Virus record (IMG/VR): IMGVR_UViG_3300047552_000142
Location: 1-20,067 of that record
DNA from: a virus
Length of the DNA: 20,067 bases
Direction: 5' to 3' (one strand)
A program made the position numbers and the translations under genes. The notes under the pieces are model-generated. The model was not told where the DNA came from and searched no databases. It saw only the letters and a list, made by a program, of their open reading frames with translations. This document shows positions 6,782 to 20,067 of the stretch, one piece after another; the stretch's first letter is position 1; each line of letters opens with the position of its first letter.

Positions 6782-8749
6782 CTATAATAAAATCCACGTT
6801 GGTCCTCCCATCCACAGGTAGCCACCTGCCTGCTTACCATTACCATCATACACGGTCTTGAAAGCATACTCGGCATCGTGGGTACCCATACCAAACTCAT
6901 CACCTGATATGTCTACATTAGCGCCTAGATATATATAGGTTAGTGGGCAAAAGTAGAAGGCATTTCGCAGGCTTGTGATCACTTCTGGCACTTCAACATA
7001 TGATAGCTTTGTGTAACGAAGACACCCTTCCAACATTGAGGTTACATGAGCTAAGTTAATACTTAGTATGCTAGCGCTATCGAGGGCATTAATGCCAAGT
7101 GTGGTTAGTGTAGTGGGCAGTTGAATGGACGTAATACCAGGATTGAGAGCAAGTCCAGAAGTATCTATCGTTGTAATGCCTTCAGGTAGTTCTATGGATA
7201 CTAAACCCTTATTAGAGAATGCGAAAGGACCTATCGCGGTTACTGGAACTCCATCTATAGTACTCGGTATTACAACATTTAAGCCTCCGTTTGTATCATA
7301 GTCGGTTATTGCTCCAGTGTTACTATCAAATGTGAAGTATTGTTCCGGAGTCGCCTCCGCTCCACCATCCATGATAATCCATCCGCGACTAATCATAGCG
7401 TCCCTTGCCGCTTCAGGAGCACCACGCGAGTACTTAACATTTCCCATCGACAACAGAACATCAGAGGTGTCTTGGGCCTCCCATCCTACCAGAAGTAGAT
7501 TATAGTTCTGGGTGGAGAATGATGATCCTTCGAGAAATTCATACGCACTTACAAGGGAACTTATGTCCCACATTGACACGTCCTGATCGAAGTTTGAGCA
7601 ACCATAAAACATACTGTCAAAATACTCTACGGATGATGTATTAAAGTGGCTCACCGGCTGATCAAATAGTTCACATTGTGCAAACATTCCTGCCATAGTA
7701 ATTGCTGATGAGGTGTTTAGGTTTGCTATACTACTGTTAAATTTGAGACATCCTGACAACATTTCTTCGAAGGTTTGGACTTTGGAAACATCCCATGTGG
7801 ATAGTGGCTGATCAAAACTGACACAATCGGCAAACATAAAAGACATATCTTCCACATTGGAAACATCTAGTCCTGCAACAGACTGATTAAAACTTATGCA
7901 TCCTCGAAGCATGTTCTGCATTGTTGTTACACTTGAGGTGTTCAACCAAGTTTCGCCTACATTCAATGGCTGATTATACATAGGGCAGTTAGTCAATAGG
8001 TTTGCCATATTTGTGACAAGAGCTGTGTCCAACAATACCAGCGACTGATTAAATTCAAGACAAGCACTTAGCATGCCGTTCATGGTTGTAACACTGCTCG
8101 TATCTAATGTGTCCACTGGCTTGTTGAACTCTCTACAGTTGTCAAAGGCCTGGCTCATGTCCTGAACTCCTGCCGTGTTTAGTGACTTTATGCTTGAGTT
8201 GAACTTGAAGCAGTTGTTAAGCATGTTAGACATATTCGTAAGCCCAGCACCCTTCAGTGCTGTCAATGGACCTTCGAACTCGTAATTGTCTTTAAACAAA
8301 CTCGTGGCATTCACTAAACCTAGAGAAGTGTTGGTCTCCCTATTAGTCGCCGAGATCTTCATGTTGCGACATCCTAGAAATAAACTAGTGATTGATGTGT
8401 TGCTACCAATCAATCTAAAATTATTACCCCACTGAGCTATGTTGGTTACTTTGCGGGCTGAGGAGGAGTTGTTAAACTGCCACCCCCAGCACTGTCCTGT
8501 GATCTTAATGTGGTATACACCACCTGATGCGTATGTGTGTGTTCTAGCAGCGGCATTATACACAGTTATTGTATCAGATGACCCGTCTCCCCAGTCTACA
8601 TCAAAGTCATAGGTTCCAGATATTATGAGAGGCAAAGTGAATGTGTTACCTGTTCCAAGTGTCGTGTCAATTGAAAAATTAAATGAAGCTGTGAAAGGTG
8701 CCGTAATAGTATTCTTCATAATCCTTAACGCCTGTGTTAACTTTAGCAT
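6782..8749 (-). CDS. BspA-like repeat surface protein (DUF285 and leucine-rich repeats)
   Basis: A 655-residue modular protein. Residues about 20-90 look PKD-like (VDWGDGSSDT, HTYASGGVYHIKITG). Residues about 145-400 hold roughly ten repeats of about 25 residues with the pattern NTSSVTTM..ML..C..FNQ, the DUF285/BspA-type surface repeat, closed by the usual end segment (RDAMISRGWIIMDGG). Residues about 470-620 are BspA-type leucine-rich repeats (VVIPSTIDGVPVTAIGPFAF, SIELPEGITTI). No signal peptide or membrane anchor is seen, so it is more likely a virion part than a secreted cell protein. The site before ATG 8749 is GGGGGG, weaker than neighbours. Such repeats bind host surfaces in bacteria and parasites; an adhesive role on the particle is inferred. 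Confidence 0.85.
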   Translation of the reverse strand: MLKLTQALRIMKNTITAPFTASFNFSIDTTLGTGNTFTLPLIISGTYDFDVDWGDGSSDTITVYNAAARTHTYASGGVYHIKITGQCWGWQFNNSSSARKVTNIAQWGNNFRLIGSNTSITSLFLGCRNMKISATNRETNTSLGLVNATSLFKDNYEFEGPLTALKGAGLTNMSNMLNNCFKFNSSIKSLNTAGVQDMSQAFDNCREFNKPVDTLDTSSVTTMNGMLSACLEFNQSLVLLDTALVTNMANLLTNCPMYNQPLNVGETWLNTSSVTTMQNMLRGCISFNQSVAGLDVSNVEDMSFMFADCVSFDQPLSTWDVSKVQTFEEMLSGCLKFNSSIANLNTSSAITMAGMFAQCELFDQPVSHFNTSSVEYFDSMFYGCSNFDQDVSMWDISSLVSAYEFLEGSSFSTQNYNLLLVGWEAQDTSDVLLSMGNVKYSRGAPEAARDAMISRGWIIMDGGAEATPEQYFTFDSNTGAITDYDTNGGLNVVIPSTIDGVPVTAIGPFAFSNKGLVSIELPEGITTIDTSGLALNPGITSIQLPTTLTTLGINALDSASILSINLAHVTSMLEGCLRYTKLSYVEVPEVITSLRNAFYFCPLTYIYLGANVDISGDEFGMGTHDAEYAFKTVYDGNGKQAGGYLWMGGPTWILL

Positions 8750-10355: not shown

Positions 10356-10817
10356 TTAAGTGGAACTTGATAATGCTACACTTCCATTATTTACTAGGAT
10401 TTGCCATCTCGTTGCACTTCTGGCTTTTAACACTAGTGCATCGTCAGCCGCATTAAATGTGGCTGTGTTATTGGTACCATCGAAAGTAACACCGCTAGCA
10501 GTGTACACTACCATCGTGTTATCAGTAGAGCCCGCGGAAGCCACTATCACCTTATCTAGTCCAGCTGCTGGTGCCGGAAGATCGTAGTACTTAGCTCCGT
10601 CAGTCGATGTGATAATACTCATACCACCTACTGACAAGTCAGTGCCATTCCCAACTGCTGAAGTAGTTGAACCACTAATGGTTTCTACTCCAGTAGCTAT
10701 ACTATCAGCTGTTATGTCTTCGGCAGTTACGTCAGCTAGAACTGTTGATTCGATAGCTGTTAACTTCTTGGTGTGCACGTGGCCCACTAGACCTTTTCCT
10801 CTTGTTACTCTGTTCAT
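10356..10817 (-). CDS. Head fiber-like protein
   Basis: A 153-residue protein. Residues 1-20 (MNRVTRGKGLVGHVHTKKL) match the leader of the 440-residue appendage protein. A short polar repeat zone (TAEDITADSI) follows, then a beta-rich C-terminal domain (DLPAPAAGLDKVIVASAGST, TATFNAADDALVLKARSATR) like the tips of small head fibers. Its place right after capsid genes supports attachment to the head. The ribosome site AAAGGAG is 12 bases upstream of ATG 10817, longer than elsewhere, and the upstream stop lies between. Fiber role is inferred from composition and context. Confidence 0.72.
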   Translation of the reverse strand: MNRVTRGKGLVGHVHTKKLTAIESTVLADVTAEDITADSIATGVETISGSTTSAVGNGTDLSVGGMSIITSTDGAKYYDLPAPAAGLDKVIVASAGSTDNTMVVYTASGVTFDGTNNTATFNAADDALVLKARSATRWQILVNNGSVALSSST

Positions 10818-10821
10818 CTGC

Positions 10822-10995
10822 TTACTTCACTCCTTTCTTACTCGATTTCTTATCAGGTTTAAGCTCTTCATTTACGTGTTTTATAAAGCGAAGTTTTATT
10901 AGCTTCTCATAGTGTTTGCAGGCTGATAGGTCTACAACATCGCCATGTTTGTAGACCTCAGTTCCTGCAGAGAACGCCTTGATTACGATATCCAT
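10822..10995 (-). CDS. 57-residue protein after major capsid gene
   Basis: A small protein, MDIVIKAFSAGTEVYKHGDV and on, with a central charged helix (CKHYEKLIKLRFIKHV) and a Lys-rich tail (KPDKKSSKKGVK). ATG 10995 is one base after the capsid stop (TAGTATG) and no strong ribosome site precedes it, so termination-reinitiation is likely. A longer in-frame reading from 11073 lies inside the capsid gene and is rejected. Small proteins at this place in related phages are often neck or head-completion factors. I do not recognise this one. Confidence 0.7.
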   Translation of the reverse strand: MDIVIKAFSAGTEVYKHGDVVDLSACKHYEKLIKLRFIKHVNEELKPDKKSSKKGVK

Positions 10996-10996
10996 A

Positions 10997-11974
10997 CTAT
11001 TCAATAGCCGCAGTGAAGTATGCTCCAAGGTCAGCCGCAACAACTTTGCAATCGAAAGCACTTTCACCTTCAACTCTATCTGATTTTAGGTGGTCCATTC
11101 TGAACTTACTTACAGCAGTTGAGAACCCTAAGTTTGATAATCCTGTCCAAGCAAACGTGTAACCAGCTGATGGAGTCATTAGTGATGGAGCTGAAGCGGT
11201 GTAGCAAAGTAATGCATTCTTCGAGTTAATAAAGCTATAAGCTCCTGTTTCTCCTTCTACGTTAGTTGCTTTTACAGCACCGGAGATGAACAGTCTGTCA
11301 ACTTCGAACAATCTAGCTAACATATCAGCAGTCACAACAGAGGATGTGGTGTATTTGTATCTGTCAATTATGTCGGGATGACTCTTTAGAGTTTCGAACA
11401 CTTCCTCAGATAGAACTAATGTGTTAGGTCTAAAGCCTGTGATACTTTTGATGTATAATCTAGCGATCTTCATGTCTTCTACAGGATCACTGTTTGCATA
11501 GTCAGACCACTTGATGAATTGGTTAGCTCCAGGAGCCGCCGCAACACCTGTGTAGTCTTTACCCCACACACCAGTGGTCATGTATTTAGTAGCAAATTGT
11601 ACTTCTCTTCTAAGTAAAAGTCTTTGAGATACGAACTTAGTAGCTTCGGAGTCTACATCGAAGACACTATCAGCATTTGCTCTAACTTGGTCAGGTACAT
11701 CCTTATGGAAAGCATAGACTCCACAGTGGTAAGTAGCACTACTGTCTACATTGTATCCACCTCCAGCTGATTCTGTTCCAGGTCCCCTCAATGTAGCTTC
11801 GTCTCTGAACCAGTCATTCTTTGTGTACGTGTAATAAATGTCGCTTTGCTTTGATACAGGAACTACAGGAAATACCTTGTCAGCGATAAAATCATTCGCT
11901 GATTGAATGTACGCTATTGATACATTTGTTAACGGTGCATTAACGTGCACTTGGCTTGCATTTGGTTGTGACAT
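10997..11974 (-). CDS. Major capsid protein (HK97-fold type)
   Basis: A 325-residue capsid subunit. N-terminal NDFIADKVFPVVPVSKQSD, followed by YYTYTKNDWFRDEA, HKDVPDQVRANADS and RLLLRREVQFATKYM, is the standard opening of a widespread phage capsid family; FRPNTLVLSEEVFETLKSHP and a late VSKFRMDHLKSDRVEG fit the remaining domains. Position after scaffold and decoration genes is as expected. AAGGAG precedes ATG 11974. It shows no long N-terminal delta domain, consistent with scaffolding supplied by a separate gene. One of the safest calls of the window. Confidence 0.93.
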   Translation of the reverse strand: MSQPNASQVHVNAPLTNVSIAYIQSANDFIADKVFPVVPVSKQSDIYYTYTKNDWFRDEATLRGPGTESAGGGYNVDSSATYHCGVYAFHKDVPDQVRANADSVFDVDSEATKFVSQRLLLRREVQFATKYMTTGVWGKDYTGVAAAPGANQFIKWSDYANSDPVEDMKIARLYIKSITGFRPNTLVLSEEVFETLKSHPDIIDRYKYTTSSVVTADMLARLFEVDRLFISGAVKATNVEGETGAYSFINSKNALLCYTASAPSLMTPSAGYTFAWTGLSNLGFSTAVSKFRMDHLKSDRVEGESAFDCKVVAADLGAYFTAAIE

Positions 11975-12007
11975 TGTTATTTCACTCCTTCTTTTTTTAA
12001 ATTACAA

Positions 12008-12403
12008 TTAAGATCCTGCGGTTAATACTGGGCTTGCACAGTTGATCAATGCTGAGATTAGACCACCAGCTCCAGTTGATGTGTCTAATGCTTGACCTAC
12101 ATAGTATGCTTCAGCGGCACCGTCTGGATCTGCGGTAACAGCTTGACCATCAGTTGAAGTTCCTAAAAGAGCTCCAGCTGTGATTCCTGCATTACTTGAT
12201 AATTTTGTTATACCGCTAACCATAATTTCAGCGGCTCCACCCGATGTAGGAGCATTCTGTAGTACTCCTACAGGAATGTCTGTTGTTGCTGTACAAAGAC
12301 CTACAGTGTTAGCTCCTGTAATCTTTACAAAGTGGTGTTGGTAGGAACTTAGATCGGCTCCTGCAGTTAGTGTGATCTTTAATCCTGGTAATTCATAAGC
12401 CAT
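12008..12403 (-). CDS. Capsid decoration protein (DUF2190-like)
   Basis: A 131-residue beta-rich protein. GLKITLTAGADLSSYQHHFV at the start, then PVGVLQNAPTSGGAAEIMVS, and a late DGAAEAYYVGQALDTSTGAG are typical of DUF2190-type proteins, which stabilise capsids from outside. It sits between scaffold and capsid genes, the usual place. AAAGGAGG, formed by the last codons of the scaffold gene, serves ATG 12403. Confidence 0.85.
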   Translation of the reverse strand: MAYELPGLKITLTAGADLSSYQHHFVKITGANTVGLCTATTDIPVGVLQNAPTSGGAAEIMVSGITKLSSNAGITAGALLGTSTDGQAVTADPDGAAEAYYVGQALDTSTGAGGLISALINCASPVLTAGS

Positions 12404-12405
12404 AA

Positions 12406-13323
12406 TTACTTACCCTCCTTTAGGTACTCATCATATAACTTCTTGCCTTCCTCGGTTGACATTACTTCTATAAATGCTTGTTGCTTCGTGATGTTCTTTT
12501 CAGTAGCCACTGCTTCAGCCCTCTTCTCAAGTAATTGGTACGAATTCCCTACATCGTTAGATACTTGTGAACTTCCAACTTCTTTGAACAGATCAGTATC
12601 TACAGCATTATTAGCGGCCTTCAGCACATTGAAAACCTTCTCGTATGCTTCTGGTACTGCGTCAGAGATGCTCTTTAGTACAGGACCAAATTCATCTGAG
12701 TTTACTCCTAGCTTATCGAGCGACTTAGCCACCTCTTGGAAGGACTTGAGACTCTCCACCTCAGCTAGTTCGTTCAATCTCTTCTCGAGAGCTTCTTTTT
12801 CAGCTAAAAGATCTGCATTTGCCTTTTGAATTGCTTCAAAGTCTCTCTTCATTATTTCATCCATTTCCTCTTCTCCCCCTTCTGGCTCCTCGCCAATAGA
12901 CTTGTTTATAACATACTCAGCGTATTGAGACGCTGTTGTACGTATTAACTCAGCTTTGTTGATCTCGTCAGACTCTAAAATGGACTCAACAGAAAGATCA
13001 AGAGCTAGTGCTTCATCACTCTTCATCATTTTCTTCTTCTCCTTACCCTTCTTACCCCACATGTCATCCATTACGTCTTCCATACCATCCATCTCATCTT
13101 CGTCGTCCATCATTTCGATGTCATCCATCATTTTTTTCTTCTTACCGGTCATGCCCATTTTCTTCATTGCCTTAGCTAATAGATCAGTGAGTATTGAGAC
13201 TTGCTCGTCCTCAGCATCCACCTCATCGCGTTTAGCTATTACTATTTTAGAATGCGCATTTGCTGGTCTGTCGACTAAATCCACCTTGTACACCTCCATA
13301 TCGGTTATCTTATTCCTCTTCAT
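12406..13323 (-). CDS. Scaffold-like protein with Met/Lys/Asp-rich segment
   Basis: A 305-residue, highly charged, largely helical protein, probably the internal scaffold of the procapsid. Residues about 10-32 (VYKVDLVDRPANAHSKIVIA) resemble the tail of XkdF-type protease regions in other phages. Residues 53-100 are a low-complexity run with 13 Met plus many Lys, Asp and Glu. Residues about 155-300 are coiled-coil-like and end in KLYDEYLKEGK. The start ATG overlaps the protease stop (ATGA at 13323-13320), so translation is coupled. It lies directly between protease and decoration genes. The scaffold role is inferred from composition and place. Confidence 0.78.
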   Translation of the reverse strand: MKRNKITDMEVYKVDLVDRPANAHSKIVIAKRDEVDAEDEQVSILTDLLAKAMKKMGMTGKKKKMMDDIEMMDDEDEMDGMEDVMDDMWGKKGKEKKKMMKSDEALALDLSVESILESDEINKAELIRTTASQYAEYVINKSIGEEPEGGEEEMDEIMKRDFEAIQKANADLLAEKEALEKRLNELAEVESLKSFQEVAKSLDKLGVNSDEFGPVLKSISDAVPEAYEKVFNVLKAANNAVDTDLFKEVGSSQVSNDVGNSYQLLEKRAEAVATEKNITKQQAFIEVMSTEEGKKLYDEYLKEGK

Positions 13324-13952
13324 TCTTCAATCCTCTCCCTTCTACCTCGACCTTCTATTGAAAAAGCTTTGTACACTCCCGACTTTATGGCTTCCCAAGC
13401 CTTATCGTCAGTCACTTCAAAGCCAATCCACCAACCAACGGGTACTACTCCTTCCGGAATACCCAATGCCTTTTGCTTCTCTATAGTAAACACCATAGAC
13501 TCAATCATGGTAGCTGAACCACCCTTCATATGCATCTCTCCACCTTCTCTGTACAGCTTAGCGAACATATAAGCGGCATCTTCTAACGTATTTTCTTCTA
13601 GCATATCACCTTGATGGTCACAAACCTGCACTAGCTGTAGTGATTTGGCCACCGTATCGTAATCCCAGTCATGCGAAACATTTGCCCATCCAAATACTTG
13701 ACGTTTGTCGGTGTCAACCTTCTCTATGGTGACTAACTGTTCACTACTTTTCTTCACTTCGACCCACTCACCTTCCTCATTCTTACCCCAGCCAGCATTC
13801 TCCAGTCCCGACCAAGCAGTTCTTATTGCTCTTACATCATCGTTATACTCAGCAAAGGCATTATTGAAAATCTTACGCCAAGTTGATTGAGCCCTTGTAG
13901 GTAAGCTACTCTTAACTGGGGCTGGTAGGTCCGCATTACTTTTGTATGGCAT
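13320..13952 (-). CDS. ChaB domain fused to XkdF-like prohead protease
   Basis: A 210-residue fusion. Residues about 1-60 are a ChaB domain (MPYKSNADLPAPVKSSLPTR; RAIRTAWSGLENAGWGK). Residues about 72-205 match the XkdF-like serine protease region: DHQGDML at 112-118, HMKGG near 141, ESMVF at 151, WWIGFEVTDDKAWEAIKSG and the Ser-bearing AFSIEG at 196-201. His141 and Ser198 are candidate catalytic residues by position, not proven. The enzyme would trim scaffold and other internal head proteins during maturation. GGAGGGGG precedes ATG 13952. It overlaps the scaffold gene by ATGA. ChaB units at this place are known in some phages; their role is unclear. Confidence 0.87.
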   Translation of the reverse strand: MPYKSNADLPAPVKSSLPTRAQSTWRKIFNNAFAEYNDDVRAIRTAWSGLENAGWGKNEEGEWVEVKKSSEQLVTIEKVDTDKRQVFGWANVSHDWDYDTVAKSLQLVQVCDHQGDMLEENTLEDAAYMFAKLYREGGEMHMKGGSATMIESMVFTIEKQKALGIPEGVVPVGWWIGFEVTDDKAWEAIKSGVYKAFSIEGRGRRERIEE

Positions 13953-13954
13953 GG

Positions 13955-15214
13955 TTATCCCCCTCCACTTATTAGGTCGCGCAACATTTTTACTATTGGT
14001 TTTGTGATCTTGAGTTTATCGATGACCCACCTATCTATTAACTTATGTTGCTTGCCCTTAGTACCTGTGAACGACTTGCCAACATCATCCTTCGGCTTCA
14101 TACCAGGAGGATAGTAGTAATAGCCCCCTTTTCCTCCTCGGTACTCCCACTCGTATCCCATATTCAAGAGTTCGTCATTCATCTTAGTCGCTAGATCCGT
14201 TTTTGCAGGGTCCTTGGACCACATCTTGTGCTTGTCAATGAACTTGGCTCTTTTTGCCAGCTCAGCTTGAGGTATTGGACCCTCATGTACCGTGTACTTA
14301 GGTCTAGTGGGAGGCTTTAGACTGGACAGCTTACCAGGTTGCTCCTGCACTTTGATAATAACGAGTCCCTCCTCGTTCGTCTTCATACTGGTGATCTTTA
14401 ATTTAGAGGTTCCACTAAGTATTACCTCATTCTCCTCGGGAAACTCCGAGAGTGCCTTTAAAGAAGCAGCATTTACTGGTTTATCGAGTTGTATTACACA
14501 ACCCTTACTGTTGATTCCCTCATCCTCATCTAGCCCCTTAGTATCACGAGCGTATTGCTCCGCTACAGATTTGTCGCTGGTCCAGCTTGATACTCCTTGC
14601 ATATCAAGTACTGATCCTTCCTTCATATTGGCTAACTGCTCCTCACTAATTGACATACCTCTAGCGATGGGCTTTGGAAAGCCGTCCTCCTGACTGTGTA
14701 TAAATTTCTCCATGTCGTGATTAACTTTATAAGCCACACTACCAACGTCAGGATTCGTCTTACGCATCTCGTCACGCACGTCTCTATATTGACCTGTCAC
14801 ATACTCTTCCACAGAGTCCTTGATCTCCCAGCATTCCTCAGTAGAGAGTGCTCCACCGGTTCTCTTATCGATGTACCTAACACGTTGGCCTTCCTCCTCT
14901 AGCCATCTACCGTGTCCTCCTGCGCCTTTCTTTTTTGCCTTTGGCGGTGCTCCCCCACCATCAGGTGCTGACCCTCCACGTTGACCTTTAACTCCTTTGT
15001 GGTCGAAATTCCCACTGCCAGCTCCACCCTTCAATACTTCTTGAAAAAGTTTCACTACAGGGGCGGTCGTGTGGTCGAATGTGGGGTTTTTTAGGCCCAT
15101 AAACTCTCTGAATTCGTCAACTATGTGCCTTGGTGCACCGTCTTTTAAATGCCAATTGCCCTTCTCCATGACGAAATAAGGGCTATCAATAAAATCTGGT
15201 CTATTAGGTGTCAT
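13955..15214 (-). CDS. ADP-ribosyltransferase-like protein 3, leader-bearing, ExE type
   Basis: A 419-residue protein. Residues 1-60 are unique; residues 61-83 carry the glycine-rich leader (LKGGAGSGNFDHKGVKGQ then RGGS) shared with the two upstream ART genes. Residues about 120-290 are an ART domain of the R-S-E class: Arg185 in PIARGMS, SSWTS at 209-213 before a helix (DKSVAEQYA), and Glu261-x-Glu263 in EENEVIL. The ExE form usually marks arginine-directed enzymes; it would transfer ADP-ribose from NAD+ to a protein. Residues 300-419 are an unrecognised extension with GGYYYYPP and a basic helix. It overlaps the MuF gene by 11 bases. Activity and target are inferred. Confidence 0.8.
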   Translation of the reverse strand: MTPNRPDFIDSPYFVMEKGNWHLKDGAPRHIVDEFREFMGLKNPTFDHTTAPVVKLFQEVLKGGAGSGNFDHKGVKGQRGGSAPDGGGAPPKAKKKGAGGHGRWLEEEGQRVRYIDKRTGGALSTEECWEIKDSVEEYVTGQYRDVRDEMRKTNPDVGSVAYKVNHDMEKFIHSQEDGFPKPIARGMSISEEQLANMKEGSVLDMQGVSSWTSDKSVAEQYARDTKGLDEDEGINSKGCVIQLDKPVNAASLKALSEFPEENEVILSGTSKLKITSMKTNEEGLVIIKVQEQPGKLSSLKPPTRPKYTVHEGPIPQAELAKRAKFIDKHKMWSKDPAKTDLATKMNDELLNMGYEWEYRGGKGGYYYYPPGMKPKDDVGKSFTGTKGKQHKLIDRWVIDKLKITKPIVKMLRDLISGGG

Positions 15215-16817
15215 AAGGGTTCTCTCCTCTCTTATCTTTGAAAAAGTCTTCTAGCATCTTATGCATATCCTTTGTGTAGTTATTTGTATCAGGTCCTGTT
15301 GCTCTCATTTGTGCAAATACCTCTGCCAGGAACTCTGAGCCGTCTAAACTCTCAGTAGCGTACACACTCACGAGGTCTGCAATTTTCTCGCCATTACCAT
15401 CTACCCAATGCTTAGTGAGGTATTTCTTTATACTAAATTGTAGATCCTTCATCTCAAAAGCTTCGGAGCCTTCAGCGGCCGCTTGTAGCAGATGCCAATA
15501 CTCGTGATCTAGTGTGCCTTTTAGCACGGTTGTTCCTTCTGGATGGAACCCTTCCTCTACCGTGTCGTTATAATTTTTTGTAAATGTGTCCATGCTTAAG
15601 GTGTTATCTACATATTTTTTGTTAAGTTCGATGTATCCTATACCAATTCTCTCATTGTACTTGGTGTGACCAAAAGCGTTTGGAGCTGGATTACCGTTTA
15701 CAGTGATATATCTGGTCAGCAGTAAGCTACGCTGTATTGGGTACTCACTGTCTAGCTCTATTAGTTGTTTGGATATCTCTTTGCTGTGTTTAAAGTGGAC
15801 CTCTTTCGGATTTGGAGCTTGATACATAAGCCTTCCATCGGTTGCCATCATTGTAATATCTTCCAAGGCTTTAGCATTCCTAGCCGTATCTACTTGCGAC
15901 TTGTACTCTTCTAACTGTTCCTCGTATGTCATTTGTTGTTCTTCTTCGTCTTCAGGGAAAACCTCTACAAGACCCATTGCACATCGACACCTTGGATGTC
16001 GTGCCGGTCTCTTACCTCCCCATGAAAACGCATCATCGATAGGAACCTGCTCACCATCTAGTGGAGCACATATATCACATAGTCTATCATCTGGAGTGAC
16101 AATCCACTCTTTCATAGTATCTTCATCGCTGATTACACCTGTGTTTCGCATATCTCTCCAGTGTGCTAACTGTCCTGCATTTGCGGAGTTCACTGTCTCC
16201 GTTCGAGCAATATTCTCAGCTCTTGCTTTTAGGAGCTTTTTAGAGTACGTATTAGTCATGGAATCAATCTTATCGGCAGATCGACCTTCATCAGTGAGCA
16301 TCTTTCTATACTTTACAACACTTCTTGCCTGTCTTTCAGTGAGTCCTACACCATCCCTTATTTGACGTGCTACTTCGTACGGATGTCCTCCGTATTCGAA
16401 TGCATATCCAATAGCTTCTCGAATGCCCTTCTTAGTTTCTTTAGATACTCCAGACACTAGCTCCGCACTACTTTCCTGTGCGTACTTGATTGCTTCTGGA
16501 TTTCGCATGTTAAAGTTTTGGCCTATGTCAGCTTTTCGAACCTTTCTTGGATTGAAGTTCTCAGCCGCTACCTTACCACCCTCTATAACGGTGTCTAGCA
16601 TAAGTGCCATGTACTTTGATAATTCCTGTTCGAATACGTGCCATGGAAACGCTCTTTCTACTTCATCATAGCTTTTAGTTTGTATTGCCTCAGCTAGCTT
16701 GTCGAGGTCAATTGACTTCTTCGTTAACTCTACAGCACGAAGAAAGAGGTTTTGGTATTTATTAACGTGGTTATCAGCAACATCGTGTAGTTGCTTCCAC
16801 TCTGGAGAAGAACCCAT
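15204..16817 (-). CDS. MuF/SPP1 gp7-like minor head protein fused to zincin domain
   Basis: A 537-residue fusion. Residues about 105-290 are the head-morphogenesis (MuF/SPP1 gp7) domain: ARTETVNSANAGQLAHWRDM, then DDRLCDICAPLDGEQVP with Cys247 and Cys250, and RHPRCRCAMG with His274, Cys277 and Cys279, a probable zinc site. A Glu-rich linker (288-305) leads to a C-terminal domain with HEYWH at 438-442 (15506-15492), Tyr486 and EFLAE at 495-499, the order found in anthrax lethal factor-type zincins. It would sit at the portal and could enter the cell with DNA. ATG 16817 is one base after the portal stop (TAGTATG) and follows GGAGGAG; the upstream TTG at 16841 is rejected. Confidence 0.88.
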   Translation of the reverse strand: MGSSPEWKQLHDVADNHVNKYQNLFLRAVELTKKSIDLDKLAEAIQTKSYDEVERAFPWHVFEQELSKYMALMLDTVIEGGKVAAENFNPRKVRKADIGQNFNMRNPEAIKYAQESSAELVSGVSKETKKGIREAIGYAFEYGGHPYEVARQIRDGVGLTERQARSVVKYRKMLTDEGRSADKIDSMTNTYSKKLLKARAENIARTETVNSANAGQLAHWRDMRNTGVISDEDTMKEWIVTPDDRLCDICAPLDGEQVPIDDAFSWGGKRPARHPRCRCAMGLVEVFPEDEEEQQMTYEEQLEEYKSQVDTARNAKALEDITMMATDGRLMYQAPNPKEVHFKHSKEISKQLIELDSEYPIQRSLLLTRYITVNGNPAPNAFGHTKYNERIGIGYIELNKKYVDNTLSMDTFTKNYNDTVEEGFHPEGTTVLKGTLDHEYWHLLQAAAEGSEAFEMKDLQFSIKKYLTKHWVDGNGEKIADLVSVYATESLDGSEFLAEVFAQMRATGPDTNNYTKDMHKMLEDFFKDKRGENPYDT

Positions 16818-16818
16818 A

Positions 16819-18159
16819 CTAATCTCCTCCCTCCTCCTCAAACATCTTAAGCAATTTCGTCATCGTTTCCTTAAATTCCTCATCTTCAGCTTCTGGCTTA
16901 GTTGGAGCTTCTTTTGGAGCTTCTACTGGTGTAGCCGATTCTGTCCTAGTTGGAAGATTTGCGGCTTTTAGCAGGTGATTCTCCAACTCAATATCAGGAA
17001 ATAGTGTAAATCCAGCACCTGATAGCTTTTGTATATAGTCACCAAGCTCTCCAAGATCTGGAGTCTCGATGTCCTCATTTGTTATTAGTGGATATTTCTC
17101 TATCTGGAAATCATTTAGGGCCATTAGCTTTGGTATTGCATTATTATTGAGTTCTTCTTTTACAACCCTCAATATTGCACCTAATGCTGTCGCGAATAAC
17201 GATGTTTTACTACTCGCTAAGGCAAATGATCCAACATTACTTTGTCCTAATAGCAAAAAGTCTGCAAGTACTGTCATAGCAATACGTTGTTCGTATCGAG
17301 TGATAATCTGAGATGTATCAAACTGTCTTTTGGAACCAGTTGAAAGTAGCTGAAGATCATACATCTTGTTACCATTCTCATCAAATGCTAACGGCATAAT
17401 GATTCCTTCTTGCTCATCTCTTCGTATGTTCGATACCATCTTTTTGTACTGCATGAATGCCTGTTGTGCTTCTTCAGTTTCTCCTGCAATGATCTCCGGT
17501 GGAATCCACATTATTGGAAGACCAGCTAAGTCGCGTTCTACACCAATACCTTCAATCTCTTCGATGTGCTTCTTAAAGTACCACGATCTGTAAGAGTTTC
17601 TAAGTATTGATCTACCTTCTGGATTATCCTTCGTAGTCCACAGTCTAAAGTGTAAGCATTTACTCATTGGTATCTCAGTAATCTTATATTTAGGTGGTGC
17701 TAGCTGTTGCATAGCTACTAGACTTTCGGTACTTTCATCATAAATCCACTCGTATAGTGTTTCTTGAGCTCTGTGAGCCCACTTTTGCCAGCCTATTCTA
17801 CCATCTGCTCGCTTCTTGTACACAACTTCCATAACCGACCAGCCAAAAGGAAGCATTGATAATATTGAACTTAGGGTTTCACTCCAAGTACCACTCATAT
17901 CCTGCAAACAATCCTCAATGAATTTAGCCGCTTCTTTATCTTGTGCCGTGTCACCTTGTGGATCTACACGCCACTCAACCTGTCTAAGTAGCATCTCTAC
18001 AGCGAATAGGAATGCACCTATGATTGACTCGTTGTCTCTCATCTCGCGATAGATCTTTACCCCACGTATTCCGCGTAATTCATGCAACCACTCTTCTGAG
18101 ATCATACCACCAAACCTAGTCAACCCAGTTGATCCTAACTCTTTGTAATTATTAGCCAC
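16819..18159 (-). CDS. Portal protein (DUF935, Mu gp29-like)
   Basis: A 446-residue portal, the dodecameric ring at the head vertex through which DNA passes. Typical DUF935 features are RDNESIIGAFLFAVEMLLRQ followed by VEWRVDP near residue 40-65, LPFGWSVMEVVYKKR at about 103-117, LHFRLWTTKDNPEGRSILR at about 168-188, and the FDTSQIITRYEQRIAMTVLA helix with SNVGSFALASSKTS near 285-325. The C-terminal 60 residues are acidic and Pro/Glu-rich, as in many portals. The start is GTG 18159, 7 bases after AGGAGG. No terminase gene is seen upstream within the window, where ART genes lie instead. Confidence 0.93.
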   Translation of the reverse strand: MANNYKELGSTGLTRFGGMISEEWLHELRGIRGVKIYREMRDNESIIGAFLFAVEMLLRQVEWRVDPQGDTAQDKEAAKFIEDCLQDMSGTWSETLSSILSMLPFGWSVMEVVYKKRADGRIGWQKWAHRAQETLYEWIYDESTESLVAMQQLAPPKYKITEIPMSKCLHFRLWTTKDNPEGRSILRNSYRSWYFKKHIEEIEGIGVERDLAGLPIMWIPPEIIAGETEEAQQAFMQYKKMVSNIRRDEQEGIIMPLAFDENGNKMYDLQLLSTGSKRQFDTSQIITRYEQRIAMTVLADFLLLGQSNVGSFALASSKTSLFATALGAILRVVKEELNNNAIPKLMALNDFQIEKYPLITNEDIETPDLGELGDYIQKLSGAGFTLFPDIELENHLLKAANLPTRTESATPVEAPKEAPTKPEAEDEEFKETMTKLLKMFEEEGGD

Positions 18160-18175
18160 TTACTCACCTCCTCAA

Positions 18176-18874
18176 TCAATTCTCTGTTAAATACACATGT
18201 AGCGTACTACCCTTGTTTTGCGTTTGTTGTATACCATACTTCGCTGTGGAAGGAGCTACAACCTCTTTTTGGTACGGCATAGCGGCTAAATGTGCTATAC
18301 TTGCACCTGATTTGTTGTTCACGTGAAATATAACTGCTTGGTTATTGTTACCCGCACCACTTGCGAAGCTCTCTGCTATGCCTTGATCGCTTGACCAGGA
18401 GCTCATTCCCTTCATGTTTATAGTGGCACCTGCTTTTAATGCGTTTGCCTCTTCAGGGGACACTATTACACCTCTGTGTACTTCACCTTCAAACTTAGGA
18501 CTCTTATTTATAAACTTGTCCATGTTCTGTGCTTTGCGTTTTATGTCCTCATTTGCATCCTGTCCTACAGATGCTGACCTTATTTCCCGATACTCACTGC
18601 CAGCAAAGCCTCTAATAGCCTCCTGATACGAATCTGCTTCTTGTCGACTTACTCCTAAGTCGTTGGCAATAAAGTTTGACATCTTATCGGAATAAGTAGC
18701 TCCAGGTGCATTGATCACTTGTTGTTGGTCAACGTGTTGAGATCTGCTCTTAGTTCCAACACGGTGCTTACCACCTCCAGGAGAACTACCACCACGTTTT
18801 CCCTTCACTCCAGCATGTCCAAAGTTTCCGCTACCAGGTCCACCTTTAATAATGTCACTAAACATCCTTAACAT
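18176..18874 (-). CDS. ADP-ribosyltransferase-like protein 2, leader-bearing, QxE type
   Basis: A 232-residue protein. Residues 1-34 are the leader (MLRMFSDIIKGGPGSGNFGH, then AGVKGKRGGS). A basic linker follows, then from about 60 a helical part and an ART fold: Arg134 in EVHRGVIVS, SSWSS at 158-162 before DQGIAESFA, and Gln202-x-Glu204 in PYQKEVV. Gln in place of the first Glu recalls C3-type enzymes, which do not modify arginine. ATG 18874 is chosen because GAGG lies 8 bases before it and the result aligns with the upstream paralogue; GTG 18883 and ATG 18880 are too close to that site. It lies directly before the portal gene. NAD-dependent activity is inferred. Confidence 0.8.
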   Translation of the reverse strand: MLRMFSDIIKGGPGSGNFGHAGVKGKRGGSSPGGGKHRVGTKSRSQHVDQQQVINAPGATYSDKMSNFIANDLGVSRQEADSYQEAIRGFAGSEYREIRSASVGQDANEDIKRKAQNMDKFINKSPKFEGEVHRGVIVSPEEANALKAGATINMKGMSSWSSDQGIAESFASGAGNNNQAVIFHVNNKSGASIAHLAAMPYQKEVVAPSTAKYGIQQTQNKGSTLHVYLTEN

Positions 18875-18884
18875 CGGCATCACC

Positions 18885-19112
18885 TCAATCCTCTACTTTG
18901 AACCCTGCATCATCAAGCTTCCATCTATCAACGATACTTGATTGCTTACTACTAGCGGCCTTCTGCACAGCTACATACTTACTGTAAAAGTCCTCAACCG
19001 TCAGATCCAGAGAATCCTCGAATATTCTGTTCCTAGTGTCGCTATCTGCTTTGTAGTAGTACTCTGAATTCTTAAATTGTGCACATGCTCTACTCATCTG
19101 TTCTTTTGTCAT
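18885..19112 (-). CDS. Small charged protein paired with ART 2
   Basis: A 75-residue protein starting MTKEQMSRACAQFKNSEYYY, mainly helical and charged. The C-terminal half (FYSKYVAVQKAASSKQSSIV, DRWKLDD, ending VED) matches the protein that ends at 19921. ATG 19112 is one base after the stop of ART 1 (TAGTATG). The stop TGA at 18887-18885 is in the run GATTGAGGTG that serves ART 2. Being small, paired and upstream of an ART it could be a chaperone, immunity partner or virion adaptor. I do not recognise a named family. Confidence 0.8.
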   Translation of the reverse strand: MTKEQMSRACAQFKNSEYYYKADSDTRNRIFEDSLDLTVEDFYSKYVAVQKAASSKQSSIVDRWKLDDAGFKVED

Positions 19113-19113
19113 A

Positions 19114-19911
19114 CTAATAATCCTCCTTCGAAACTATTACAGCTCCTCTGTTTAGTATGATGTAATACTTCTCAGAGCTCTCAGAGGATGGCTTACTTGA
19201 TACAGCATCAATACCCTTGCCAGTTAAATATGTTCCCAAGCCCATCGTGCTTGTTCCAATATTCTGTGCATAGTCCTTCTTAAGCTGATAAAACTCCTCC
19301 GAGTCCGTATCCACGATTTTGGAGTCTTTATGTAATGTCATCTTACCAACACTTCCCTTACCTTTGTCCTCACTGGTATACCTTCTAGCATAGTGTTGAG
19401 CCGTCACTTCCGCAGTTGTTGTATACGTACCATTCATAGATATTCCTAGACCTCCATAGTACTCACCGCTACGAAAGCTCTCAGCTCCCTCTCGAGTAGA
19501 ATATCCTCTGTAGAGGACTGGCTGACCGTTAGCCTGTGCATACTCAACAACTTGCTCGTCACTAGCTATATGTGGTTTTTTAGCTGCACCAGTCATAGAA
19601 GCAACTCTCTCTAGCTGACGGTCTCGCAATCGCTGTGCAGAACCAAAGGGTGAGGTTCCAGCTGTAGCTTCGAATAGCTCCTGGTTACTCATGACCTTAG
19701 GTTTATTATATTTGACGTCGGGAACTTTGTTAGTTATCTTAGATTTGTCAGTTGTTTTTGATGCTCTATGTTCGCTTACCTTATCTCTACCACCTATTTT
19801 ACTATGTCCACCACCTGGTGCAGAGCCACCCTTCTTACCTTTAACTCCGGCGTGACCAAAATTGCCACTAGTTGGGCCTCCTTTGATAATATTGTCAAAC
19901 ATATATACCAT
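19114..19911 (-). CDS. ADP-ribosyltransferase-like protein 1, leader-bearing, atypical
   Basis: A 265-residue protein with the leader MVYMFDNIIKGGPTSGNFGH followed by AGVKGKKGGS. A basic, disordered linker (40-75) leads to a domain with YRGYSTREGAESF (Arg135), GTYTTTAEVTAQHYARRY (161-178) and a late EKYYIILNRGAVIV near 247-260. These fit the Arg, the STS-type strand and a terminal strand of ART folds, but no clear ExE or QxE pair is visible, so it may use another arrangement or be inactive. GAGG lies 7 bases before ATG 19911. It follows the partial small gene and forms the first half of a duplicated pair. Confidence 0.72.
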   Translation of the reverse strand: MVYMFDNIIKGGPTSGNFGHAGVKGKKGGSAPGGGHSKIGGRDKVSEHRASKTTDKSKITNKVPDVKYNKPKVMSNQELFEATAGTSPFGSAQRLRDRQLERVASMTGAAKKPHIASDEQVVEYAQANGQPVLYRGYSTREGAESFRSGEYYGGLGISMNGTYTTTAEVTAQHYARRYTSEDKGKGSVGKMTLHKDSKIVDTDSEEFYQLKKDYAQNIGTSTMGLGTYLTGKGIDAVSSKPSSESSEKYYIILNRGAVIVSKEDY

Positions 19912-19920
19912 AGTGTCACC

Positions 19921-20067
19921 TCAATCTTCCACTTGGAACACGTCGTTGCTATCAAGTTTCCATCGTTCCATAATACTTGATTGCTTTTTACTGTCACCCT
20001 TCTTAACAGCTACATACTTGTCATAGGCATCCATCACTGGTTTTGCATCTCCTTTAAAATCTTTGAA
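19921..20067 (-). CDS. Small charged protein paired with ART 1 (5' end outside window)
   Basis: The last 48 codons of a gene that starts beyond 20067. The end reads DAYDKYVAVKKGDSKKQSSI, MERWKLDS, then VED and TGA at 19923-19921. It matches the C-terminal half of the 75-residue protein at 19112-18885 closely. The stop sits in GATTGAGGTGAC, the ribosome site of ART 1, exactly as in the second copy. Full length is probably near 75-80 residues. Function unknown. Confidence 0.82.
   Translation of the reverse strand, partial: FKDFKGDAKPVMDAYDKYVAVKKGDSKKQSSIMERWKLDSNDVFQVED

What the first reader, a model, noticed from the sequence alone, without database searches (positions are those of the whole stretch)
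18176..20067. Tandem duplication of a two-gene unit: small protein plus ART
The order small charged gene then leader-bearing ART occurs twice. The small proteins share YVAV-x-K...KQSSI...RWKLD...VED, and both end with GATTGAGGTGA leading into the ART start. The first small gene is cut by the window edge, so more copies may lie upstream. Strict pairing suggests that the small protein serves its ART as chaperone, immunity partner or adaptor. The first ART has diverged strongly from the second, so the duplication is old or each unit has been exchanged.
Basis: seen in the sequence. Interest (0 to 1): 0.72.

Follow-up and report, generated by a model that had tools for sequence, protein, structure and literature searches.

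The report
Phage ADP-ribosylating enzymes with shared tag
Just before its portal gene this phage carries two different ADP-ribosylating enzymes that share a conserved N-terminal tag, each preceded by a small gene; the tag recurs across many phages on head proteins and likely injected enzymes, while the small protein has no detectable relatives and an unknown role.

Summary
The repeat is real but is not a tandem duplication of a whole small+ART unit. One continuous ~213-nt block is shared (small-gene 3' part, junction, ART leader). The ART bodies are not paralogues: ART1 has a diphtheria/PARP/RES-type ART fold, ART2 belongs to the Alt/VIP2/Vis-type family, and ART2's closest relative in the window is a third leader-bearing ART (13955-15214) with no small gene before it. 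The two halves of the block differ in synonymous divergence, so one event does not explain both. The leader (GGxGSGN[FW]GHxGRPGxxGGS) is a widespread phage motif: 214 copies in 120 viral loci, up to 9 per locus, on proteins with portal, MuF or head-protease domains and ART, NUDIX, Zeta, topoisomerase IB, nuclease or peptidase domains; none in 398 Bacillota genomes. I infer head-packaged, injected effectors that share a modular tag. The small family is an orphan. Its conservation beside two unrelated ARTs argues against an ART-specific immunity protein. Unrelated small families alternate with leader genes in other phages, and there they do not covary with their cargo. Strict small-ART pairing is not supported; adaptor, immunity and passenger roles remain open.

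The parts
19924..20067 (-). small1, C-terminal 47 codons and stop; 5' part beyond the contig end
   Evidence: homologous to small2 (65% over 37 aa)
19114..19911 (-). ART1: 265 aa, leader plus C-terminal ART-fold domain (diphtheria/PARP/RES type)
   Evidence: no Pfam hit
19790..19900 (-). ART1 leader MFDNIIKGGPTSGNFGHAGVKGKKGGSAPGGG (approximate ends)
18885..19112 (-). small2: complete 75-aa small protein gene, starts 1 nt after the ART1 stop
   Evidence: orphan in all searches
18176..18883 (-). ART2: leader plus Alt/VIP2/Vis-type ART domain; start probably the ATG at 18874 by analogy with ART1
   Evidence: PF01129 1.1e-6; phrog_16619 2.7e-19; Vis 3e-5
18762..18870 (-). ART2 leader MFSDIIKGGPGSGNFGHAGVKGKRGGSSPGGG (approximate ends)
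16819..18159 (-). Mu-type portal gene directly downstream of ART2
   Evidence: PF06074 6.6e-34; phrog_113 3e-86
15204..16841 (-). MuF head protein with C-terminal extension containing HEYWHLL (possible metallopeptidase cargo)
   Evidence: PF04233 2.8e-11; HExxH-like motif read by eye
13955..15214 (-). ART3: 419 aa, leader at about aa 65-100, ART domain homologous to ART2, extra C-terminal region; no small gene before it
   Evidence: 30% over 236 aa with ART2; PF03496 6.2e-5

Best explanation
[quoted passage not shown] Their common N-terminal leader GGxGSGNFGHxGVKGKxGGS is a modular tag or linker, found in many tailed phages on head-associated effectors, that marks the boundary between head-associated and enzymatic parts and lets unrelated catalytic domains be swapped onto the same N-terminus. 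The window shows this: two ART clades sit behind near-identical leaders. The small gene before each ART is translationally coupled to it and most likely acts on the common part (leader or loading step) or is a passenger carried with the exchange module, rather than being specific to the catalytic domain. Shown: architecture, homology, leader distribution, the ART fold by prediction. Inferred: packaging, injection, tag function, translational coupling, the role of the small protein.
For: Leader: 214 copies in 120 viral loci, 46 loci with two or more, up to 9; positions outside the search pattern are 93-99% conserved (GG at -5/-4, G -2, S -1, S +14); 0 of 398 Bacillota genomes. Partners among 142 leader proteins: portal families, MuF, XkdF/DUF2213 protease, ChaB, and ART, NUDIX, Zeta toxin, topoisomerase IB, PBECR, Ntox50, InPase, peptidase. 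Order portal-NUDIX-leader-ART in L088, MuF-leader in L159, portal-leader-topoisomerase IB in L173. L148 fuses a portal to both ART2-type and ART1-type domains. ART1 fold: best solved match, Z 9.8, is a cyanophage pre-ejectosome chain, then diphtheria toxin and relatives. Published: phage ARTs are often encoded beside terminase, portal and capsid genes and predicted to be head-packaged (PMC9503650), and T4 Alt is injected (PMC5512222). Leaders are saturated at third positions (29% identity) but 77% identical in protein, hence selected as protein.
Against: No virion proteomics or delivery data for this phage; the leader could be a linker, a protease site or a portal/MuF docking site. One sampled phage (L146) has the leader before, not after, the MuF domain, so it is not a simple N-terminal signal. 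The ART1 model is moderate (pLDDT 71.9, pTM 0.71) and Foldseek E-values are only about 1e-3. The leader sample is the first 120 stretches of a capped scan, not a random one. The portal relatives of this phage (51 viral loci) lack the leader entirely.
Confidence: 0.6

Rival explanations
1. The small genes are immunity proteins: each neutralises an ART in the producing cell, as with Bxa and its two small immunity partners. With the usual toxin-then-immunity order small2 would protect against ART1 and small1 against an unseen upstream cargo.
For: Small ORFs follow MuF toxin genes in 89% of cases (PMC5576092) and two ORFs adjacent to bxa are immunity proteins (PMC11699363). Small2 starts 1 nt after the ART1 stop. 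Orphan, fast-evolving small proteins are typical of immunity genes.
Against: small1 and small2 share 65% over their C-terminal 37 aa although the neighbouring ARTs are from different clades; ART2 and ART3 have no following small gene; in the L085/L184 arrays small identity does not track either neighbouring cargo (Spearman 0.04 and 0.16 over 19 non-orthologous pairs).
Confidence: 0.25
2. The small genes are passengers or minor structural genes of this phage lineage; the second copy arose when recombination between leader or small-gene sequences inserted another cargo, and there is no functional tie to the ARTs.
For: The shared block is short (~213 nt) and its two halves differ in synonymous divergence, as expected from patchy recombination or gene conversion. 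The family is absent from all other leader loci, and no leader occurs in the portal relatives, where TerL directly precedes the portal in many of those inspected.
Against: Small then leader-gene order is kept in both copies with an identical stop/Shine-Dalgarno junction, and unrelated phages show the same alternation with their own small families, which suggests a recurrent functional arrangement.
Confidence: 0.35
3. The whole small+ART unit was duplicated once, long ago, and the ART bodies simply diverged beyond recognition.
For: Same gene order twice and continuous DNA similarity across the gene junction.
Against: ART2's body is recognisably related to ART3 (30% over 236 aa) but not to ART1; ART1's body has its own relatives as C-terminal domains in other leader proteins (L087, L148, L163, L180) and L148 carries both ART types side by side.
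Confidence: 0.08

Closest known systems
Head-packaged phage ARTs (Alt/VIP2, N4-ART families; T4 Alt), PMC9503650
   Same: ART genes beside portal, MuF and capsid genes in late modules; ART2/ART3 match ART and Alt-like profiles
   Different: free-standing ARTs behind a short shared leader, in tandem, with small genes between; packaging untested
MuF polymorphic toxins and Bxa (PMC5576092, PMC11699363)
   Same: phage head module carrying ART and peptidase-like cargo, small ORFs adjacent; phrog_16625 'Bxa ADP-ribosyl transferase' matches five leader proteins
   Different: ART1 and ART2 have no MuF domain; they carry only the leader; the small gene lies before the ART
Polyvalent proteins (PMC5512222)
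   Same: same effector repertoire (ART-PolyVal, InPase, PBECR, ddrB-ParB) occurs in leader proteins
   Different: window ARTs are short single-effector proteins
T6SS cargo-defining domains RIX and WHIX (PMC10435454, PMC12135965; seen as search results only)
   Same: analogy: a shared delivery module fused to diverse toxins
   Different: different machine; no homology tested

Membership tests
Alt/VIP2-type (R-S-E) ART: ART2, ART3 | profile match to ART families | tested here: met
   ART2: PF01129 1.1e-6 above its cut-off, Vis 3e-5; ART3: PF03496 6.2e-5, just under cut-off, and homology to ART2
Alt/VIP2-type (R-S-E) ART: ART2, ART3 | catalytic R, S-x-S, and E-x-E | tested here: inconclusive
   Alignment with Vis and ART2/ART3: R of VHRG and SSWSS present; last motif reads Q-K-E in ART2 and E-N-E in ART3, so ART2 may not be arginine-specific
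Diphtheria/PARP/RES-type ART: ART1 | ART fold | tested here: met
   AF2 pTM 0.71; nearly all listed PDB matches are ART-fold proteins; best Z 9.8 then 7.9; shared fold does not show activity
Diphtheria/PARP/RES-type ART: ART1 | conserved catalytic residues | tested here: inconclusive
   R78, Y106, N197 invariant among five relatives but no invariant Glu
MuF toxin family | N-terminal MuF domain on the toxin | tested here: not met
   ART1-3 have no PF04233 match; the window's MuF gene is separate (15204-16841)
Head-packaged phage effector | presence in the virion and injection | not testable with these tools
   only genomic context and leader partners
Toxin-immunity pair (small/ART) | small protein neutralises its toxin and covaries with it | tested here: inconclusive
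   no covariation in the parallel arrays (7 small genes); conserved small beside unrelated ARTs; neutralisation untested

The most novel reading that the evidence does not exclude
GGxGSGN[FW]GHxGRPGxxGGS is a general phage cargo tag: a short conserved module by which many tailed phages load, process or deliver unrelated injected effectors, in arrays of up to nine copies, with lineage-specific small accessory proteins translated just ahead of the tagged cargo.
Probability: 0.35. Interest if true: 0.85.

Novelty: new variant of a known kind. Interest (0 to 1): 0.55.

Why it matters
How most phages select which proteins to package and inject is poorly known outside T4-like models (own knowledge). 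A short motif shared by portal, MuF and protease fusions and by many enzyme types gives a testable handle on that question and a way to find candidate injected effectors by sequence. No paper in the held library contains the motif strings, which is not proof that it is undescribed.

Tried and rejected
Close relatives of small2, ART1 and ART2 in viral contigs by peptide pattern: none. Small family by profile in viral and genome contigs, phages, PDB, PADLOC, NCBIfam, 398 Bacillota genomes: none credible; the one weak hit (L186, E 0.005) lies antisense to a longer ORF and has no phage context. Structure of small2: poor model (pLDDT 53.7, pTM 0.41, helical), not searched. Small1 as the C-terminus of TerL: considered because TerL precedes the portal in relatives; no TerL-like sequence seen in the 48 residues; not formally excluded. 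Narrow leader pattern (SGNFGHAGVKG): no other virus. tblastn with the bare leader: no match, probably masked as low complexity. Two genome-search runs failed for a wrong handle.

Full report
What is there. The window is a complete 20,067-bp virus record, so nothing lies beyond 20067. On the minus strand the order is small1 (cut), ART1, small2, ART2, portal, MuF, ART3, a protein with a ChaB-like N-terminus, then further late genes.

The repeat. small1 and small2 are homologous (E 5.7e-10). At DNA level there is one continuous block of about 213 nt from KYVAV in the small gene through the junction to the end of the ART leader (score for the small part 106 against a shuffled maximum of 36). After the leader the similarity stops. 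BLASTP between ART1 and ART2 finds only the leader, whereas ART2 and ART3 align over 236 residues at 30%. In the small tail 14 of 20 identical residues use the same codon, in the leader 8 of 27 (Fisher p 0.0085). The leader is thus old and protein-constrained, and the small tails were shared or homogenised more recently. A single duplication of the unit is not a sufficient account.

The enzymes. ART2 matches Pfam ART (1.1e-6), phrog_16619 minor head protein (2.7e-19) and the solved Vis toxin (3e-5). ART3 is its relative. ART1 has no family match, but its domain recurs at the C-terminus of other leader proteins, and a five-sequence AlphaFold2 model (pTM 0.71) matches ART folds; the best is a cyanophage A4 pre-ejectosome chain (Z 9.8, rmsd 4.2, 146 residues), next diphtheria toxin and relatives at Z 7.9 and below (Foldseek E about 1e-3). 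Fold does not prove activity, and ART1's catalytic glutamate is not identified.

The leader. A pattern for GN[FW]GHxGxxGxxGG returned 120 viral stretches before the scan stopped at its limit. They hold 214 copies; 46 loci have two or more, L180 has nine; single proteins carry up to five. Positions that the pattern left free are nearly invariant (GG at -5/-4, G -2, S -1, S +14; R and P at +7/+8 about 81%), so this is a true motif. In 398 genomes of the phylum of a Clostridium MAG it is absent. Among 142 leader proteins the recognised domains are head proteins (portal, MuF, XkdF/DUF2213 protease, ChaB) and effectors (ART, NUDIX, Zeta, topoisomerase IB, PBECR, Ntox50, glutamine deamidase, InPase, peptidases). 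In several fusions the leader lies between the two sorts (L088, L159, L173), though in L146 it precedes MuF. No held paper contains the motif strings.

The small genes. The family is absent from every collection searched, including all leader loci. The pattern nevertheless has a parallel. In L085 and L184 (two related phages) three and four paralogous ~86-aa genes alternate with leader metallopeptidase-like genes (HExGHW), several with 4-nt overlaps. L153 has two paralogous 65-aa small genes flanking a leader gene. These small families are unrelated to the window's. In L085/L184 small-protein identity does not follow either neighbour's identity once orthologous pairs are removed (only seven small genes). 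So small-plus-tagged-cargo arrays are recurrent, while a cargo-specific partner role is not supported.

Mechanism. Most likely these are late-made, head-packaged and injected ARTs whose catalytic domains are swapped behind a shared tag; published work places phage ARTs in this context (PMC9503650; PMC5512222). Packaging, injection, the tag's biochemical role and the small protein's function are inferred. The small protein may act on the leader or loading step, may be an immunity protein as for Bxa (PMC11699363), or may be a passenger; I cannot separate these here.

Lineage. The 51 portal relatives found in viral contigs have no leader, and in many of those inspected TerL directly precedes the portal, so the insertion before the portal is specific to this lineage among those sampled.

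Noticed in passing
window 15204-16841: MuF protein whose C-terminal extension holds HEYWHLL, a possible metallopeptidase cargo; it has no leader.
   Followed up: no
window 13955-15214: ART3 has an extra 60-aa N-terminal part before its leader and ~120 aa after its ART domain, both unassigned.
   Followed up: partly
window 6782-8749: 655-aa protein that looks like a BspA-type or DUF285-type repeat protein by eye, among the late genes.
   Followed up: no
L184 1500-9560 (G002 10507-18557): Array of six leader metallopeptidase-like genes interleaved with four paralogous ~86-aa small genes, followed by a gene that looks SLOG-like by eye.
   Followed up: partly
L148 1-4455 (-): One 1485-aa frame joins portal, NUDIX, ART2-type domain, leader, ART1-type domain and an Ntox50-like end.
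   Followed up: partly
L180: Nine leader copies in 13.9 kb, five of them in one 1012-aa frame.
   Followed up: partly
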